Virus record (IMG/VR): IMGVR_UViG_3300032047_000115
Location: 1-25,524 of that record
Length of the DNA stretch: 25,524 nt
Source of the DNA: a virus
Strand: one strand, 5' to 3'
The notes below the pieces were generated by a model. That model was not told the DNA's origin, did not search any database, and saw nothing but the letters and a program-made list of their open reading frames with translations. This document shows positions 3,001 through 22,271 of this stretch, in pieces. Positions within the stretch are counted from its first letter, which is position 1, and the number at the start of each line of letters is the position of its first letter. Position numbers and translations under genes: made by a program.

Positions 3001-5280
3001 CCATCCTTGTACAGGAGGTAAACCATAGGTAGAATCGGGGTCTACGTTAGTTCTTTGCTCATTTCTATTAGCTTCAGGTACATATCCTGTAGCATCACCT
3101 CTTGCACTAGCTGTAGAACCACCTGAAGTAGTCCAACCACCAGCTTTCATACCAGAGAATGCAAATCCCCAAATATAAGTACCACTGTTCATTTCAAACA
3201 TGGTGTTATATTCAGAAGTACCAGCTACAACTGCATTTGAAGCGTTGAAATCTCTACTTGTATCGTATCTTTGGGTATTACTTGGGTGTATAAAGCAACT
3301 ACGCATTGTAGTACCAACAATAGAAACGTTATCAGCCTCTACACGTAAAGGTAAAACCTCTTGATAAGTACCAGCAGCTACAGAAATCATCCAACCTTGA
3401 CCTACACGGCCTGCTTGGTTAGTAACTGTACCACCACTTACATATGTATGAGCTAAATTAGTATCAACTGTTGTCTCTAATTGGCATTCAAATGATGTAT
3501 TACTTGTGATATTTGAGACAAAACGTAATGGATCATCTGCTTCAGGGAAGGTATGGTTGTTGGTACCACCTCCATAGTTACAACTCCAAACTAATCCAGC
3601 CATAGTAACCTTCATACCAACCCTTAAATTATGATTAGCATCAGTTGTTACTTCTAATAAACCAGTTTGATGGTTGTATGTAGCAGCTGTTACGTTAGTT
3701 GTAGTAGTTGAAGTTATATTTTCGTTTACATCAAGTAAAGCACCTCTAATAGTCTTCTTAGCTTTAATAATTCTATGACCATCGTTAAGATCATTACCAT
3801 TAACAGAGTCTACATATACTACTTTAGGTTGTGAAGTGAATGTACCACCTGAAGTGATAGCTCTCCAAACACCAGTATTAGCACCAGTTTTATCCCATAT
3901 AGATAATGTTTGATCGTTTAAGTGATCATACCATAATTTACCTTCAGTAAAATTAGTTTCTGTAGGAGCAGTACCTTTATTAGTAGTGTGGCTATAATAT
4001 ATAGCATCAAAACGTTTTGCTAAAGCTTTACCTGTAGCAATACTGTCATCACTATCCCAGTCAGGAGTAGGATAATTAGAAGTAGTAGTAGAAGCATCTA
4101 ATTCTGATGAAGTGATTACATCATCATTCCTTATTTTAGCTAACTCTACAGTATTATCATTTATAGCTAGTGAAACTTCTCCGTCAGCTGTATATGTTGT
4201 TGTAATAGGTACACTAGATTGTACTCTAACAGTACCTTGTTGAGAAGCTGTAGAGCGATCTACACCAATAGTTACATCACCAACAGTACCACCAACAGCA
4301 TGAGTTACATTTATAGCATCTCCACTAACTTGGTTTACCTTAATAACACCTTGGGTAGTAGGAGTACTACGCTCAGTTGAAATAATAGCACTTCCACTAT
4401 AATTGGAATCAGTCTCATTTGAAGCACCGACTTTAATACCGTGCCCTGATTCGACAATAATAATACCTCTATTATTTTTAGTACTAAGTTCTCCAGATAT
4501 GACAGCATCACCATTGGTGTAGTTAACATCAATACCGTCACCTTCATTTATCTTAACAATACCTTTATTGGTTTTAGAACTATCTTCACCTGATATTGTT
4601 GTCTGACCGTTAGAGTTTGTACCACCTGTAGCATCAGTTAAGTTAATACCTTCGCCTTCTATGAGGTCATCGAAGATAACTTTTCTTAATTGCTCACGGT
4701 TTACAGCATCATCATCTGAATCAGCACCAGCTACATGTTCAATTTTTCTATCAATACCTGATACTGGATGTGCTACATCAACAGCGTTAGCACTAAACTT
4801 AGATTCTTTAATAGAAAGTTTAGCTTCATTAACACCTTCTTCAGCAATATGCTGGATTCTTCTTAGTTCTGAGTTTAATTCACTAGCACGAATAGTACCT
4901 TGAGAACTAAAATCACTTTGAACTTCAGATGTAATACGCTCTAAAGTAATAATAGCATTAGCTGTTGGCTTTGCTACACCATTATCTGTATTTAAAGTGA
5001 TCTGGGTATTTCCAGAATTAAACTGATAGTTATTTACTGGAGTGGTAGCTGCAATACTACCAGCGTTAGAACCGCTAGTATTAGATGCATCATATTGTGA
5101 GTGGCTTGTGCCAGCTGTACCAGCATTAGTAGCTTCTGCTTGTAGTACGGCTGTATTGGAATCACGGCTAGGTTCAAAAATATAAACCTTTAAGTCTGAT
5201 CTATTTATTAGATCTATTGTTCCGAGGCTGAAGGTTACTGTATTACCATCCCCCGTATATTCGAGTCGTGTTGTTGCCAT
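1..5280 (-). CDS. Tail fibre protein, T7 gp17-like N-terminus, very long; 3' end outside window
   Basis: The frame from ATG at 5280 has no stop to the left edge: 1760 codons, against 553 residues for T7 gp17. Residues about 1-205 match the T7 tail-fibre anchor: 'MATTRLEYTGDGNTVTF', then 'RITSEV..SDFSSQGTIRASELN', 'IQHIAEEG' and 'DDDAVNREQLRKV'. Residues about 215-360 are four degenerate repeats of roughly 35-40 aa, each with a '(S)GxxxS..xxGxVxV' theme. Around residue 485, 'VYVDSVNGNDLNDGH' is the usual opening of a single-stranded right-handed beta-helix. The later part holds three copies of an 'xIxPxGSGxVxL' motif, plus 'WHDGSYYGYI' and 'TDGSGNLSW' motifs typical of marine phage fibres. The N-terminus should dock on the gp11/gp12 tail and the rest should bind the host surface. 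The gene begins 24 nt after the gp16 stop with no clear Shine-Dalgarno. The fibre assignment is firm; the receptor is unknown. Confidence 0.93.
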   Translation of the reverse strand, partial: MATTRLEYTGDGNTVTFSLGTIDLINRSDLKVYIFEPSRDSNTAVLQAEATNAGTAGTSHSQYDASNTSGSNAGSIAATTPVNNYQFNSGNTQITLNTDNGVAKPTANAIITLERITSEVQSDFSSQGTIRASELNSELRRIQHIAEEGVNEAKLSIKESKFSANAVDVAHPVSGIDRKIEHVAGADSDDDAVNREQLRKVIFDDLIEGEGINLTDATGGTNSNGQTTISGEDSSKTNKGIVKINEGDGIDVNYTNGDAVISGELSTKNNRGIIIVESGHGIKVGASNETDSNYSGSAIISTERSTPTTQGVIKVNQVSGDAINVTHAVGGTVGDVTIGVDRSTASQQGTVRVQSSVPITTTYTADGEVSLAINDNTVELAKIRNDDVITSSELDASTTTSNYPTPDWDSDDSIATGKALAKRFDAIYYSHTTNKGTAPTETNFTEGKLWYDHLNDQTLSIWDKTGANTGVWRAITSGGTFTSQPKVVYVDSVNGNDLNDGHRIIKAKKTIRGALLDVNENITSTTTTNVTAATYNHQTGLLEVTTDANHNLRVGMKVTMAGLVWSCNYGGGTNNHTFPEADDPLRFVSNITSNTSFECQLETTVDTNLAHTYVSGGTVTNQAGRVGQGWMISVAAGTYQEVLPLRVEADNVSIVGTTMRSCFIHPSNTQRYDTSRDFNASNAVVAGTSEYNTMFEMNSGTYIWGFAFSGMKAGGWTTSGGSTASARGDATGYVPEANRNEQRTNVDPDSTYGLPPVQGWIAAFRPNCSLKKSPYIQNCTSISDTDINNAAYDPVTQTGGLGGDKDSGMTAGGILVDGSVPSATSPLRSFVVDAFTQINMDGPGILCTNNGYAQLVSFFGTFCHYHAKSLNGGMLNLANCTTDYGRYGLIADGKSATTTFTSTVDGAKAAGQTSFNIDATTITSGYFGTGFNNSTANLRPGDNYLVSIGSDTYEIVSATPVGGSWTATNGWTITIMKTNSTNPAINDGLTNAITDGATVNFYQRSYISTGGHTFEYTGAGTDYRAAPENGGVPIEANEVVNRNMGKVWQSSTNHVGKFKVGDTFVIDQRSGKVESKGITLTGPVTSNNNDNITIDPAGSGVVTIGSAFNASTGSTIGNLTLANGSITDSSGAISFGDENLSTTGWIIALGQIDGGSLKADTTTINAATITDSTGAIGFGDENLTTTGTLSAGNTTVGTLGAGNTTVGTLGASGNVTFNTGNITTTSNADITLDPNGSGLVKLGSNLDVNGNSIVSASNGNIPIAPNGSGKVVLDGLSWPTADGTAGYVLKTDGSGNLSWTQVLPANNPTVSGSIVITDNLQLTDDDDSHSISLTAPATVPSNVVLTLPAAAPSANQYLKAGASTPTTLEWENALAITTVQTANSQSAQLALTTQEGDVVIRTDESKTYIRNSGTSNSMSDFTHLQSPTGGVTSFNSNTGAITADQALAAVNASSGTVATARLGSGATGSKFLRGDNTWQTVTGTTINNNAANRLITGSGTANELNALTSITASGAQLDFADNGKARFGNSQDLSIWHDGSYYGYIQNDSDALWIRSDMTYLTDANGSHTYLRGTAGTDVKIYYDNNLKFQTKSTGVEITGTCEATTFSGSGASLSSLNASNLSSGTLPASRINGLAFDGSNITNLPASGGSITATASGSLTNAKGVIINSNGTVSHPTASPATWGNSAQMSTYYQNECSCVYVGSDTFVYGFYNPGTGYRSLCAVKVNANGTITAGTPVNAITSGVQGPGNIAWDSDNNV
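1651..1722 (-). repeat. 30-bp tandem repeat inside the tail-fibre gene
   Basis: Positions 1651-1680 and 1681-1710 are near-identical 30-base units, and a degenerate third copy starts at 1711. They encode consecutive ten-residue units with the core 'GAGNTTVGTL'. The period is a multiple of three, so copy-number changes would keep the reading frame. Confidence 0.85.
1729..1909 (-). repeat. Two diverged copies of a 43-residue fibre module
   Basis: The stretches starting at 1741 and 1870 share the core 'atctccaaaac.aat.gctc' and are offset by 129 bp (43 codons). They encode 'DSTGAIGFGDENLTTTG' and 'DSSGAISFGDENLSTTG'. This looks like an internal duplication in the distal fibre shaft. Confidence 0.75.
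4215..4625 (-). repeat. Four degenerate protein repeats in the proximal tail-fibre shaft
   Basis: On the minus strand the translation shows successive units with the cores 'TNKGIVKINEGDGIDV', 'NNRGIIIVESGHGIKV', 'TTQGVIKVNQVSGDAINV' and 'SQQGTVRV'. Each is followed by a short strand and a '(S)GE/V-D/L-(R)ST' turn. The similarity is at the protein level. A repeating beta-structured shaft just after the virion anchor is the simplest reading. Confidence 0.75.
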
Positions 5281-19180: not shown

Positions 19181-20284
19181 TTAGAATGCGGTAGGTGCAG
19201 TGTTGGTTGTATGTAGCTCAACACAAGCAGCAGGGTTTAGATAATCTGCGCCCATAGCGAGTCTTCCGAGGATTACATCACCTTGGTAGATGACAGAAAC
19301 ATCGCCAGAAGTTACTTGAACCTGTGGTCCAATAGTTTCTACAACACCAGCAGCTTCTTTCTGGAATATAAGTCCACAAGAAGTTGCGAATCCGTTAGCA
19401 GGGCCATAATCATTATTGATTCCTGTTACAGAAGGCTCACCATTCTCAACAGAAGCTCCAACAAATGAACCAGCATTATCAATAGTAGATGCAGTACCAT
19501 ACTTGCCTTGGAACGGAACGTTCATAGACTTGAAGATCTTGATACCAGCAATAGAGATAACACCACCACCTGTTTGAAGACCTGTACCTTGCTCGTCACG
19601 GTTGATCAAAGCATTTGAAGATACATTCTCTATTAGCGAATAGTATTGGCGTGGAGAGAGAACCGCACATCTGCCGTCAGTACTCAATCCTTTCTCGTCT
19701 AAAATAGCAGCAGCTTCAAAGAAAGCAGATACAATCTTAGCAGAATCAAGTGCGTCAGCAGCAGCACCAGTACCAGTACCAACCTGAAGGGTTGTTCCAC
19801 CTGGTTCTAGCTTACCTGTAGCAGAGATTGGGTGGGCTGCACGAGCACCACGGGTGATCGCACGGAAGATTAAACGGTCATACTTTTCAGCAAGAGCATA
19901 GCCGATCTTCTTAGAGATTTCTCCTCTCAATTCGTAGTGAGCAAGGGTCTCGTCCAGATCATACACGAAAGCAGAACTGATCAATAGGTCATCAACGACT
20001 ATTGTTTTTTCTGCTACTGGGGGATCGCCTGAACCCAAGATAGGGGTTCCTGGAGTGTGGAAAGCCGCACCCATGCGTCCTGTGTAGATGAACTGTAAAC
20101 TCTTACCGTTCTTAAGTGTACGTCTCGTAACCATGTCACGAGCGATTGTGTTGTGCTGGAATCCTTTAAATAGTTCTCCAGAAAACAACTGTAAATAGGT
20201 GGCGTACTTATCTGTAGCACCACCGTAACCTGTACCTGTAGATAGATTTATCCTACCTAAGGCGGTTTGGGTAGCATTAGCCAT
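19181..20284 (-). CDS. Major capsid protein (gp10-like)
   Basis: A 367-aa protein in the T7 gene 10 position (gp10A is 345 aa). Family-like blocks are 'LFSGELFKGFQHNTIARDMV' near residue 34, 'SLQFIYTGRMGAAFHTPGT', a central 'KYDRLIFRAITRGAR', and 'CAVLSPRQYYSLIEN' near residue 207. This is the HK97-fold shell protein. The gene has its own 170-nt leader with a palindrome and direct repeats, and is followed by a strong terminator, as expected for the most abundant virion protein. I see no slippery site or extended second frame like the T7 10A/10B frameshift. It appears richer in G+C than genes 12 and 15-17. Confidence 0.95.
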   Translation of the reverse strand: MANATQTALGRINLSTGTGYGGATDKYATYLQLFSGELFKGFQHNTIARDMVTRRTLKNGKSLQFIYTGRMGAAFHTPGTPILGSGDPPVAEKTIVVDDLLISSAFVYDLDETLAHYELRGEISKKIGYALAEKYDRLIFRAITRGARAAHPISATGKLEPGGTTLQVGTGTGAAADALDSAKIVSAFFEAAAILDEKGLSTDGRCAVLSPRQYYSLIENVSSNALINRDEQGTGLQTGGGVISIAGIKIFKSMNVPFQGKYGTASTIDNAGSFVGASVENGEPSVTGINNDYGPANGFATSCGLIFQKEAAGVVETIGPQVQVTSGDVSVIYQGDVILGRLAMGADYLNPAACVELHTTNTAPTAF

Positions 20285-20417
20285 TTAAGAGTAAATGTGA
20301 ATGTGTATGTTTGACTTACTCTAATCGATTAGAAATTTTATTGTTGAAATTTTAGGGTATTTCATCACCACAGCTGCGGCAATAGGGTATCGAACGTATT
20401 CGGCCTAAAGCCAATTA
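20285..20417 (-). promoter_or_regulatory. Capsid gene leader with 14-bp palindrome and 8-bp direct repeats
   Basis: No credible ORF lies here. TCTAATCGATTAGA at 20320-20333 is a perfect 14-bp palindrome. AGAGTAA (20288-20294) and TTACTCT (20316-20322) form a 7-bp inverted repeat that could fold the leader next to the start codon. TAGGGTAT occurs twice, at 20353-20360 and 20383-20390, exactly 30 bp apart. No good Shine-Dalgarno precedes the ATG. Given the strong expression expected of the capsid gene, these may be promoter or translation-control elements. No convincing host -35/-10 pair was seen; phage RNA polymerase promoters of this group are not recognisable by eye. Confidence 0.45.
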
Positions 20418-20448
20418 CAGAGAGGTCCGACTCTGAGGTGCCTCTCTG
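20418..20448 (-). terminator. Hairpin between the 50-aa ORF and the capsid leader (terminator-like or processing site)
   Basis: CAGAGAGG and CCTCTCTG form a perfect 8-bp stem with a 15-nt loop, starting 6 nt after the 50-aa ORF stop. No U-run follows, so it is not a classical intrinsic terminator. RNase processing or attenuation upstream of the capsid gene is equally possible. Confidence 0.45.
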
Positions 20449-20454
20449 CTTTGT

Positions 20455-20607
20455 TTACAAGGTAGTCAAAGCTTCTTCAATCCCAATATCTTCTTCAAGA
20501 TCATTGAGTTCTTTAGTTGCTTCTTTAACTTGCTCTACCTGTTTAGCTTTAACAGCTTCAGGCTTAGGGTTGTTAGTTATAAAACTGGTGGGTATAGCGT
20601 TATCCAT
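20455..20607 (-). CDS. Small acidic protein of unknown function (50 aa)
   Basis: The ATG at 20607 overlaps the stop of the upstream beta-barrel gene (TAATG), which argues for coupled translation and a real gene. The product is 'MDNAIPTSFITNNPKPEAVK...' with a Lys/Glu-rich, probably helical middle (residues 18-40) and an acidic C-terminal part. I do not recognise it. It lies just before the capsid gene and could be a minor assembly or accessory protein; this is only positional inference. Confidence 0.65.
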   Translation of the reverse strand: MDNAIPTSFITNNPKPEAVKAKQVEQVKEATKELNDLEEDIGIEEALTTL

Positions 20608-20969
20608 TAGAAACTATACTTAGCTCCAGCTTTAACATTGTAAACATTATCGAAGTCGCCAGCAGAAATACCAGAGAACTCACCATAGAATGCTAACTTA
20701 TCTGTAGCATTAAGGTTAGCTCCGATCTTTCCAGAGAGTTCAGTCTCAGTACCGTCAACACCATTAGCTGCTAGTACTGTTGGACCACCTTGTACATAGT
20801 AGGCAACTTTATCTGTGCCTCCTTCGTAACCAACGTGGATGTCTATAGCTCTAGCTACATATTCAGAACCAACATGACCTTGGTTCAATTCTGTGTTAAC
20901 GTATACGCCAGCGGTTGCAGGTGCAGACGCTAGAGTAGTTGCTGCGAGAGCAAGTGCAATTGTTTTCAT
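20607..20969 (-). CDS. Secreted porin-like / outer-membrane beta-barrel-like protein (120 aa)
   Basis: The first 20 residues are a textbook signal peptide: 'MK', a hydrophobic Ala/Leu stretch, then 'APATA' with an A-x-A cleavage site before Gly21. The mature ~100 aa alternates polar and apolar residues in strand-like blocks ('VYVNTELN', 'AIDIHVGYEG', 'VAYYVQGGP', 'LAFYGEFSG', 'YNVKAGAKYSF'). It ends in Tyr-Ser-Phe, the C-terminal aromatic signal of outer-membrane beta-barrel proteins. It likely folds in the host outer membrane as a small barrel. It has no T7 counterpart. Its ATG is 4 nt after the stop of the 18-aa leader-peptide gene and has no Shine-Dalgarno of its own. Possible roles are envelope modification, superinfection exclusion or solute permeability; none can be chosen from sequence. 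Confidence 0.8.
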   Translation of the reverse strand: MKTIALALAATTLASAPATAGVYVNTELNQGHVGSEYVARAIDIHVGYEGGTDKVAYYVQGGPTVLAANGVDGTETELSGKIGANLNATDKLAFYGEFSGISAGDFDNVYNVKAGAKYSF

Positions 20970-20973
20970 TTAA

Positions 20974-21030
20974 TTAAGATTTGATTGTTTTTGTGTATGT
21001 AACACCACGATACTTTAGTTTTACAGTCAT
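20974..21030 (-). CDS. 18-aa peptide with DUF4278-like start, downstream of riboswitch
   Basis: ATG 21030 is preceded by a good Shine-Dalgarno AAGGA (21037-21041) at 6-nt spacing. The product is 'MTVKLKYRGVTYTKTIKS', whose 'LKYRGVTY' core resembles the opening strand of cyanobacterial DUF4278 proteins. Very short peptides of this kind are known downstream of the 'Downstream-peptide' (glutamine-II) riboswitch of marine cyanobacteria and cyanophages. The gene lies directly after such a candidate and ends 4 nt before the next ATG. It may act as a peptide or mainly as a translated leader. Confidence 0.8.
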   Translation of the reverse strand: MTVKLKYRGVTYTKTIKS

Positions 21031-21036
21031 TGTAAT

Positions 21037-21100
21037 TCCTTAGTACCTAAGCCCCGTTCCATGCTTAGGTTTCATGCGTCCATGAAAAATGGATGAACGG
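21037..21100 (-). ncRNA. Candidate glutamine-II riboswitch (Downstream-peptide RNA motif)
   Basis: On the minus-strand RNA, CCGUUC (21100-21095) pairs with GAACGG (21059-21054) as the outer stem. Inside it, UCCAU/AUGGA (21093-21089 with 21083-21079) closes a 5-nt loop. ACCUAAGC (21070-21063), between the inner hairpin and the 3' strand of the outer stem, is perfectly complementary over 8 bp to GCUUAGGU (21052-21045), giving a pseudoknot. The 'CGUUCAUCC...GGACG...GGAACGG' pattern and the pseudoknot match what I remember of the Downstream-peptide motif, later shown to bind L-glutamine. The pseudoknot ends 3 nt before AAGGA, so ligand-stabilised folding could block translation of the 18-aa peptide. 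Covariance-model confirmation was not possible here. Confidence 0.82.
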
Positions 21101-21109
21101 ACGTGATGT

Positions 21110-21226
21110 TTAAAGTTTTTTGTAAATGTCGTTAGCTGATAATAAAATTTTAATTTTAGTAGAGGGACTACTAGCCTTACTAGCAGCATTAACTCTTCTA
21201 TCAAACTTATCGTATTTATTAGGCAT
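21110..21226 (-). CDS. Small basic protein of unknown function (38 aa)
   Basis: The ATG at 21226 lies inside the last codons of psbA (8-nt overlap), and the frame stops at 21110, just before the riboswitch. The product '[20 protein letters not shown]...' is basic and Lys/Ser-rich, ending in 'SANDIYKKL'. I do not recognise it. The start/stop overlap with psbA supports translation, but the gene is short and could be a chance ORF in the psbA tail region. Confidence 0.5.
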
Positions 21227-22271
21227 TTAATGTTACCTCAGTAGCCGCTAAATCTAGCGGGAAATTGTGTGCATTTCTTTCATGCATTACTTCCATACCT
21301 AAGTCGGCACGGTTAAGTACGTCAGCCCATGTAGGGATGGTTCTTCCATTTGTGTCAACAACGGACTGGTTAAAGTTAAAACCGTTGAGATTAAAAGCCA
21401 TAGTGGAGACTCCCATAGCGGTAATCCATATGCAAAGGACGGGCCAAGTAGCCAAGAAGAAATGTAAACTACGGCTATTATTAAAGCTAGCATACTGGAA
21501 TATGAGTCTCCCAAAGTAGCCATGAGCCGCAACAATGTTATACGTTTCTTCCTCTTGACCGAATTTATATCCATAGTTCTGAGAATCTAATCCAGTTGTT
21601 TCACGGATTAATGATGATGTAACAAGACTTCCATGCATTGCAGCAAACAAGGCACCTCCAAACACACCTGCTACTCCGAGCATGTGGAAGGGATGCATTA
21701 ATATGTTGTGCTCTGCTTGGAAGACAAACATGAAATTAAACGTACCCGATATACCTAGAGGCATACCATCAGAGAATGAACCCTGACCGAATGGGTAGAC
21801 TAGAAATACAGCAAATGCCGCTGCAACTGGAGCCGAATATGCTACACATATCCAAGGTCTCATTCCTAATCTATAGCTAAGTTCCCATTGACGTCCCAAG
21901 TAAGATGAGATACCAATGAGGAAATGGAAGACGATGAGTTGGTACGGCCCTCCGTTGTAGAGCCATTCATCAAGGTTTGCAGCTTCCCATATTGGGTAAA
22001 AATGCAATCCGATTGCGTTGCTTGACGGGACAATCGCTCCCGATATGATGTTGTTTCCATAGAGTAAAGATCCAGCGACAGGCTCACGGATACCGTCGAT
22101 GTCAACTGGAGGGGCTGCGATAAACGCAATAATAAAACATGTAGTTGCGGCTAGTAAGCAAGGTATCATAAGCACACCGAACCACCCCACGTAGAGGCGG
22201 TTGTCTGTGCTTGTTACCCACTCACAAAACCTATCCCAATTAGAGGATTGATCAAGAGTAAGTGTTGACAT
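21219..22271 (-). CDS. psbA: Photosystem II D1 reaction-centre protein
   Basis: A 350-aa phage-borne D1. Numbering runs two behind the host standard. All key residues are present: Tyr159 (Yz, standard 161), Asp168 (170), Glu187 and His188 (189, 190), P680 ligand His196 (198), and the iron/quinone-site His213, Ser262 and His270 (215, 264, 272). The manganese ligands at the C-terminus, '[14 protein letters not shown]', are intact. The extension removed on maturation after 'DLA' is only eight residues ('ATEVTLNA'), about half the usual cyanobacterial length. Standard position 130 is Gln. There are five transmembrane helices and no intron or frameshift. It replaces fast-turning-over host D1 during infection to sustain photosynthesis and energy supply. 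It follows hli as TAATG, so the two are one translational unit. It appears richer in G+C than the flanking long virion genes. Confidence 0.99.

What the first reader, a model, noticed from the sequence alone, without database searches (positions are those of the whole stretch)
20607..21100. Riboswitch, leader peptide and phage outer-membrane-like gene arranged as a coupled unit
The 18-aa ORF stops only 4 nt before the ATG of the secreted beta-barrel-like gene, which lacks its own Shine-Dalgarno, and the 50-aa ORF overlaps that gene's stop as TAATG. Translation of all three may depend on ribosomes loaded at the riboswitch-controlled site. This would place a phage envelope protein under glutamine control, a use of this riboswitch I do not know to be described.
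Basis: inference. Interest (0 to 1): 0.78.

Follow-up and report, generated by a model that had tools for sequence, protein, structure and literature searches.

The report
Phage glutamine riboswitch controlling a micropeptide
Viruses of ocean photosynthetic bacteria carry a glutamine-sensing RNA switch whose real target is a tiny conserved peptide just before the capsid gene; the peptide's own codons appear to form the part that hides the ribosome site, and the membrane-protein gene behind it in this virus is an optional extra.

Summary
In detail: on the minus strand lie a Glutamine-II riboswitch (54.7 bits), an 18-aa ORF, then 4 nt later a Phage_OMP gene without Shine-Dalgarno, then a 50-aa ORF overlapping as TAATG. 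The reading is partly right. A peptide with a YRGxxY motif follows the riboswitch in every phage copy with enough sequence to see it (127/127). The barrel gene does not: in 113 copies the next larger ORF is the major capsid gene in 76 and the barrel gene in 21. The peptide is under purifying selection, resembles the host's riboswitch-controlled DUF4278 microproteins (below Pfam's cut-off), and has no glutamine codons, so it looks like the regulated product, not an attenuator leader. Where the barrel gene follows, it mostly sits 0-12 nt behind the peptide stop and 0/88 have an SD; but its start is unusually open and the capsid gene also lacks an SD, so dependence on the peptide is plausible, not shown. 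New here: covariation supports a phage-specific expression platform in which codons 2-7 fold onto the ribosome-binding site, exclusive with aptamer helix P3, and codons 8-11 pair with the sequence just 5' of the aptamer.

The parts
21046..21102 (-). Glutamine-II riboswitch aptamer (PK strands 21099-21095 and 21059-21055; P1; P3 21070-21064 with 21051-21045)
   Evidence: Rfam RF01704 54.7 bits; P1, PK and P3 94.9% of cells paired with covariation in 37 phage sequences
21102..21109 (-). P0 5' strand ACAUCACG, immediately 5' of the aptamer, complementary to the YRG codons
   Evidence: 8 bp in the window; real pairings stronger than swapped ones, 0 of 10000 permutations
21010..21046 (-). Predicted RBS hairpin: leader with SD (AAGGA 21041-21037) and AUG folded on peptide codons 2-7; shares nucleotides with P3
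   Evidence: MFE fold; covariation
20974..21030 (-). 18-aa micropeptide ORF MTVKLKYRGVTYTKTIKS with YRGxxY motif
   Evidence: Such a peptide follows the riboswitch in 127/127 untruncated phage copies; pN/pS 0.28 at non-motif codons
21002..21009 (-). P0 3' strand CGUGGUGU within the YRG codons of the peptide
20607..20969 (-). Phage_OMP gene (120 aa, signal-like N-terminus, predicted six-stranded barrel-like fold), 4 nt behind the peptide stop, no SD
   Evidence: PF24653 130.9 bits; model pLDDT 86; nearest solved folds OmpX/OmpA, weak
20455..20607 (-). 50-aa ORF overlapping the barrel stop (TAATG), lineage-specific
   Evidence: only near-identical relatives found

Best explanation
This is a phage-borne Glutamine-II (Downstream-peptide) riboswitch whose conserved target is a YRGxxY micropeptide, the likely phage counterpart of the DUF4278 microproteins behind the same riboswitch in Prochlorococcus. 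Without glutamine the leader is predicted to form an OFF fold: peptide codons 2-7 pair with the ribosome-binding site (RBS hairpin), and that hairpin stacks on P0, a helix between codons 8-11 and the sequence just 5' of the aptamer. Glutamine favours P3 and the pseudoknot; P3 uses some of the same nucleotides as the base of the RBS hairpin, so the SD and AUG are freed and the peptide is made when glutamine is plentiful. In the window's clade the barrel gene lies 4 nt behind the peptide as an optional second cistron and probably gains some translation from ribosomes that have just terminated. Shown by computation: the parts, their conservation, covariation of both folds, the optional barrel gene. 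Known from the literature for a host copy: ON behaviour. Inferred: the switch between the folds, the peptide's role (tuning host nitrogen metabolism such as glutamine synthetase during infection), and coupling to the barrel gene.
For: Riboswitch. Peptide in 127/127 copies and 120/120 against 1.3% of shuffles. Next gene capsid 76, barrel 21, of 113. Purifying selection pN/pS 0.21 (0.28 outside the motif). Host products behind the same riboswitch are DUF4278 (E 6e-11, 7e-8) with repeats of the same motif. ON switch and DUF4278 link in Prochlorococcus: PMC6316151, PMC6698751. OFF fold: 89.2% of cells paired, 81 double-change cells against 30.1 in shuffles, slid controls 34-43%; RBS hairpin -8.74 against -6.33 kcal/mol swapped, 0/10000; P0 in both peptide classes, z -5.6 and -6.6, and not in hosts. 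ON fold 94.9%. Barrel spacing mode 4 nt.
Against: About 30% of copies have no flank-codon helix of 6 bp or more, and in the long-peptide class the RBS hairpin is not significant in the swap test. Shuffle controls do not remove relatedness. Folding programs do not model the pseudoknot; forcing the aptamer did not change predicted SD exposure in a first test without the 5' flank. P0 at about +71 in long peptides cannot itself block initiation. The peptide is below the DUF4278 cut-off. Nothing shows that the peptide is made or does anything.
Confidence: 0.66

Rival explanations
1. One reading: a three-gene translationally coupled unit in which barrel and 50-aa translation depend on ribosomes loaded at the riboswitch-controlled site, so that a phage envelope protein is under glutamine control.
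For: Spacing mostly 0-12 nt in barrel-bearing loci and 0/88 with an SD before the barrel gene, while 83% of peptide starts have one; TAATG overlap with the 50-aa ORF.
Against: The barrel start is unusually open (0.69 unpaired against 0.43 at random sites), so no structure needs unmasking; capsid and scaffold genes also lack an SD; in other lineages the barrel gene sits upstream of psbA or behind hli; most riboswitch copies have no barrel gene directly behind.
Confidence: 0.3
2. The barrel gene is translated independently from an open AU-rich, SD-less start, as the capsid gene may be; the riboswitch governs the peptide only, and the tight spacing is ordinary compact gene packing.
For: Open start and SD-less neighbours; the barrel gene is also packed against hli in other phages.
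Against: Close spacing is kept across different peptide classes, which suggests some benefit from closeness.
Confidence: 0.4
3. The peptide ORF is a classical attenuator leader peptide that senses amino-acid supply by ribosome stalling.
For: Short ORF between a regulatory RNA and a gene.
Against: No glutamine codons; no terminator hairpin on this strand; the amino-acid sequence, not just a codon run, is conserved; the peptide persists where no barrel gene follows.
Confidence: 0.04
4. The YRG codons are conserved chiefly because of the RNA pairing, and the peptide itself is a by-product.
For: P0 and RBS hairpin lie in these codons.
Against: Third positions vary most and pN/pS is below 0.3; host proteins keep the motif without the pairing.
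Confidence: 0.1

Closest known systems
Glutamine-II (Downstream-peptide) riboswitch, Rfam RF01704, with DUF4278 microproteins of marine picocyanobacteria (Yfr6 peptide, PMM1846)
   Same: Same aptamer, same order (riboswitch, then small YRGxxY protein), published ON behaviour for a Prochlorococcus copy
   Different: Phage peptide has one YRG unit against 2-3 in the host; phage-specific P0 and RBS hairpin made with the peptide's codons; fixed place before the capsid gene; sometimes a barrel gene directly behind
Glutamine riboswitch of methylophage Melnitz (PMC9004378)
   Same: A glutamine riboswitch in a marine phage
   Different: There a glnA-like motif associated with tmRNA; no micropeptide described
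Phage_OMP / DUF680 / T4-GC_241 family of cyanophages (PF24653, PHROG 417)
   Same: The barrel gene is a clear member
   Different: In the five T4-like cyanophages inspected it is not next to a riboswitch-peptide, and several have their own SD
Translationally coupled gene pairs of phages
   Same: Stop and start a few nt apart, no SD for the second gene
   Different: Upstream gene is a riboswitch-controlled micropeptide; dependence untested

Membership tests
Glutamine-II riboswitch (RF01704) | Covariance-model score above the curated cut-off | tested here: met
   54.7 against 33 bits
Glutamine-II riboswitch (RF01704) | P1, pseudoknot and P3 helices kept | tested here: met
   94.9% of cells paired, 51 double-change cells against 13.9 in shuffles
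Glutamine-II riboswitch (RF01704) | Binds L-glutamine and raises expression | not testable with these tools
   Known for host copies only (PMC6698751, PMC6316151)
DUF4278 (PF14105) proteins | Score above Pfam's gathering cut-off | tested here: not met
   15.6 bits against 25.3 for a 28-residue construct (18-aa peptide plus the start of the barrel protein); 19.0 for the best phage peptide tried
DUF4278 (PF14105) proteins | YRGxxY unit in a small protein behind a glutamine riboswitch | tested here: met
Phage_OMP (PF24653) | Score above cut-off over the whole domain | tested here: met
   130.9 against 27 bits, residues 1-120
Attenuator leader peptide | Codons for the sensed amino acid | tested here: not met
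   No glutamine codon in MTVKLKYRGVTYTKTIKS
Attenuator leader peptide | Intrinsic terminator between leader and gene | tested here: not met
   None on the minus strand in 20200-21300
Translationally coupled pair | Stop and start close, second gene without SD | tested here: met
   4 nt; 0/88 with SD
Translationally coupled pair | Second start masked unless the first ORF is translated | tested here: not met
   Start region 0.81 unpaired in the window
Translationally coupled pair | Second gene falls when the first is not translated | not testable with these tools
   Needs reporter fusions

The most novel reading that the evidence does not exclude
T7-like cyanophages share a glutamine-gated micropeptide cassette in front of the capsid gene, in which the coding sequence of the peptide is itself the expression platform (RBS hairpin plus a 5'-flank/codon clamp), so that the phage reads host nitrogen status, makes a host-mimicking DUF4278-like peptide when glutamine is high, and in some clades gates an outer-membrane barrel protein with the same switch.
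Probability: 0.35. Interest if true: 0.82.

Novelty: new variant of a known kind. Interest (0 to 1): 0.62.

Why it matters
It shifts attention from the barrel gene to a riboswitch-micropeptide cassette found in many T7-like cyanophages at a fixed place before the capsid gene. [quoted passage not shown] It also suggests that phages of very abundant ocean phototrophs adjust a step of infection, or of host nitrogen metabolism, to glutamine.

Tried and rejected
Attenuator leader peptide: no Gln codons, no terminator. SD absence as proof of coupling: capsid and scaffold genes lack it too. A simple anti-SD hairpin between the P3 strand and the SD (CUUAG-GUA-CUAAG in the window): by inspection not kept in relatives such as NATL1A-7 and R27W. 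Aptamer-only folding to show SD exposure: no net effect; structure appeared only when the 5' flank and early codons were included. The 50-aa ORF as a conserved third member: only near-identical relatives. The peptide as a Pfam DUF4278 member: below cut-off. Solved-structure comparison of the barrel: only weak OmpX/OmpA-like matches. Literature for the phage module: none found in the searches made; Klahn 2018 itself is not held. In one search the peptide of the window was entered one base off (21029 instead of 21030); its SD score is not affected in substance.

Full report
OBSERVATION. A Glutamine-II riboswitch lies at 21102-21046. An 18-aa ORF, MTVKLKYRGVTYTKTIKS, runs from ATG 21030 to a stop ending at 20974. 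Four nt later comes the ATG of a 120-aa Phage_OMP protein (20969-20607; PF24653, 130.9 bits), whose stop overlaps a 50-aa ORF as TAATG. The record is a 25.5-kb IMG/VR virus contig with the portal-scaffold-hli-psbA-capsid order of T7-like cyanophages.

WHAT FOLLOWS THE RIBOSWITCH. Every copy with enough downstream sequence is followed by a short ORF with a YRGxxY-type motif: 127 of 127, the other four being cut by the contig end; 120/120 against 1.3% of shuffled sequences. The next ORF of 60 aa or more is the major capsid protein in 76 of 113 and the barrel protein in 21. P-SSP7, P-SSP2, P-SSP3 and P-GSP1 have riboswitch and peptide, then capsid, with no barrel gene between; the Tangaroavirus and Cheungvirus isolates have the barrel gene between. 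S-TIP37, S-RIP2, S28-C3 and S45-C4 also carry riboswitch and peptide; in S-B28 and 7B11-B no riboswitch was found. So the conserved unit is riboswitch plus micropeptide in front of the capsid gene; the barrel gene is optional.

THE PEPTIDE. Across 131 distinct cores the third codon position varies most, and pN/pS is 0.21, or 0.28 when motif codons are left out. Four Prochlorococcus genomes hold 4-6 such riboswitches each. Their products include a 33-aa and a 57-aa protein with two or three YRG-like units that match Pfam DUF4278 (E 7e-8 and 6e-11), and a 54-56-aa family without the motif. The phage peptides give only sub-threshold DUF4278 matches. A review (PMC6316151) states that the type-2 glutamine riboswitch activates expression on glutamine binding, is linked to DUF4278 proteins, and that DUF4278 covers the N-terminus of the glutamine-synthetase inactivating factor IF17. 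The peptide is therefore best read as a minimal phage counterpart of these host proteins. It has no glutamine codons, and no terminator-like hairpin lies on this strand, which disfavours attenuation.

The nucleotides just 5' of the aptamer are complementary to the YRG codons. In 88 thinned phage sequences mean duplex energy is -10.51 kcal/mol against -8.88 (sd 0.22) when flanks are swapped between sequences, not reached in 10,000 permutations; in host copies there is no effect (-6.10 against -5.78 for shuffled flanks). It holds both for short peptides (motif about 20 nt after the ATG) and long ones (about 70 nt), z -5.6 and -6.6; in some phages the flank instead pairs with the SD/ATG region. 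In short-peptide phages the leader also pairs with codons 2-7, hiding SD and AUG: -8.74 against -6.33 swapped, 0/10,000. Minimum-energy folds of the window, P-SSP7 and P-GSP1 leaders give a junction of P0, an aptamer-side arm and the RBS hairpin. On a 37-sequence alignment this OFF fold has 89.2% of cells paired and 81 double-change cells (shuffled 30.1; slid controls 34-43% paired); the ON fold of P1, PK and P3 has 94.9%. P3 and the RBS hairpin share alignment columns 72-73, so they cannot both form in full. This fits the ON switch reported for a host copy and the 'alternative structure' proposed in PMC6698751. Limits: relatedness inflates such tests, about 30% of copies lack a 6-bp P0, and the long-peptide class gives no significant RBS hairpin.

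THE BARREL GENE. Among 88 distinct riboswitch-peptide-barrel loci none has an SD before the barrel gene (mean +1.6 kcal/mol), while 83% of peptide starts do; 5 of 9 T4-like barrel genes have one. The spacing from peptide stop to barrel ATG is mostly 0-12 nt with a mode of 4 (range -4 to 31). This suggests coupling. Against a strict dependence: capsid and scaffold genes of the window also lack an SD, the barrel start is far more open than random sites (0.69 against 0.43 unpaired), and other T7-like phages keep the barrel gene upstream of psbA or packed behind hli. The model of the protein (pLDDT 86, six strands) resembles OmpX/OmpA only weakly; where it acts is unknown.

VERDICT. Observation confirmed. 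The peptide-coded expression platform is the more novel outcome.

Noticed in passing
window 20414-20356 (-) with hairpin 20448-20418; L006 2663-2726; L001 3818-3880: A conserved structured RNA lies about 50-107 nt before the capsid ATG in 159 of 181 T7-like cyanophage capsid loci, also in phages without a detected riboswitch; none of the 34 named records that match has a feature annotated there, and the window shows no Rfam match for it at E<=1. Stem and hairpin covary (48/48 paired at three stem positions, one of them with four pair types).
   Followed up: partly
just 5' of that element: window 20448-20418, L001 3747-3817, L006 around 2600-2660: The element is preceded by one of three seemingly interchangeable modules: a hairpin with loop CACCUCAGAGUCGGA (at least 83 loci), a tRNA-Gly (ARAGORN, 10 loci), or a T-arm-like hairpin resembling a truncated tRNA whose 5' strand overlaps the end of the peptide ORF (P-SSP7). 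It may be a processing signal for the capsid mRNA 5' end.
   Followed up: partly
L011 (Synechococcus phage S-SBP1) 4170-4372: The Glutamine-II riboswitch appears split: a 54-aa ORF (gp32, 4181-4345) sits inside the P1 loop, Rfam sees only the 3' half, and the YRG peptide follows. No other such case among the loci held.
   Followed up: partly
L003 (P-SSP10) about 2640: One A is missing from the A-run at the start of the barrel gene relative to NATL2A-133, breaking the signal-peptide frame in the database record; sequencing error or true frameshift.
   Followed up: no
L378 (contig QCFJ01000008.1, Prochlorococcus single cell AG-363-G03): A contig filed as Prochlorococcus holds the phage-type riboswitch and peptide with phage-type P0, so it is probably a phage contig from an infected cell.
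   Followed up: no
L291-L409 and L424-L428 (Prochlorococcus): One family of host Glutamine-II riboswitches precedes a conserved 54-56-aa protein (MNNLLQIREKIKRANRLYEAQLLATKSGEVTPYRRSVFEERI...) with no Pfam match.
   Followed up: no
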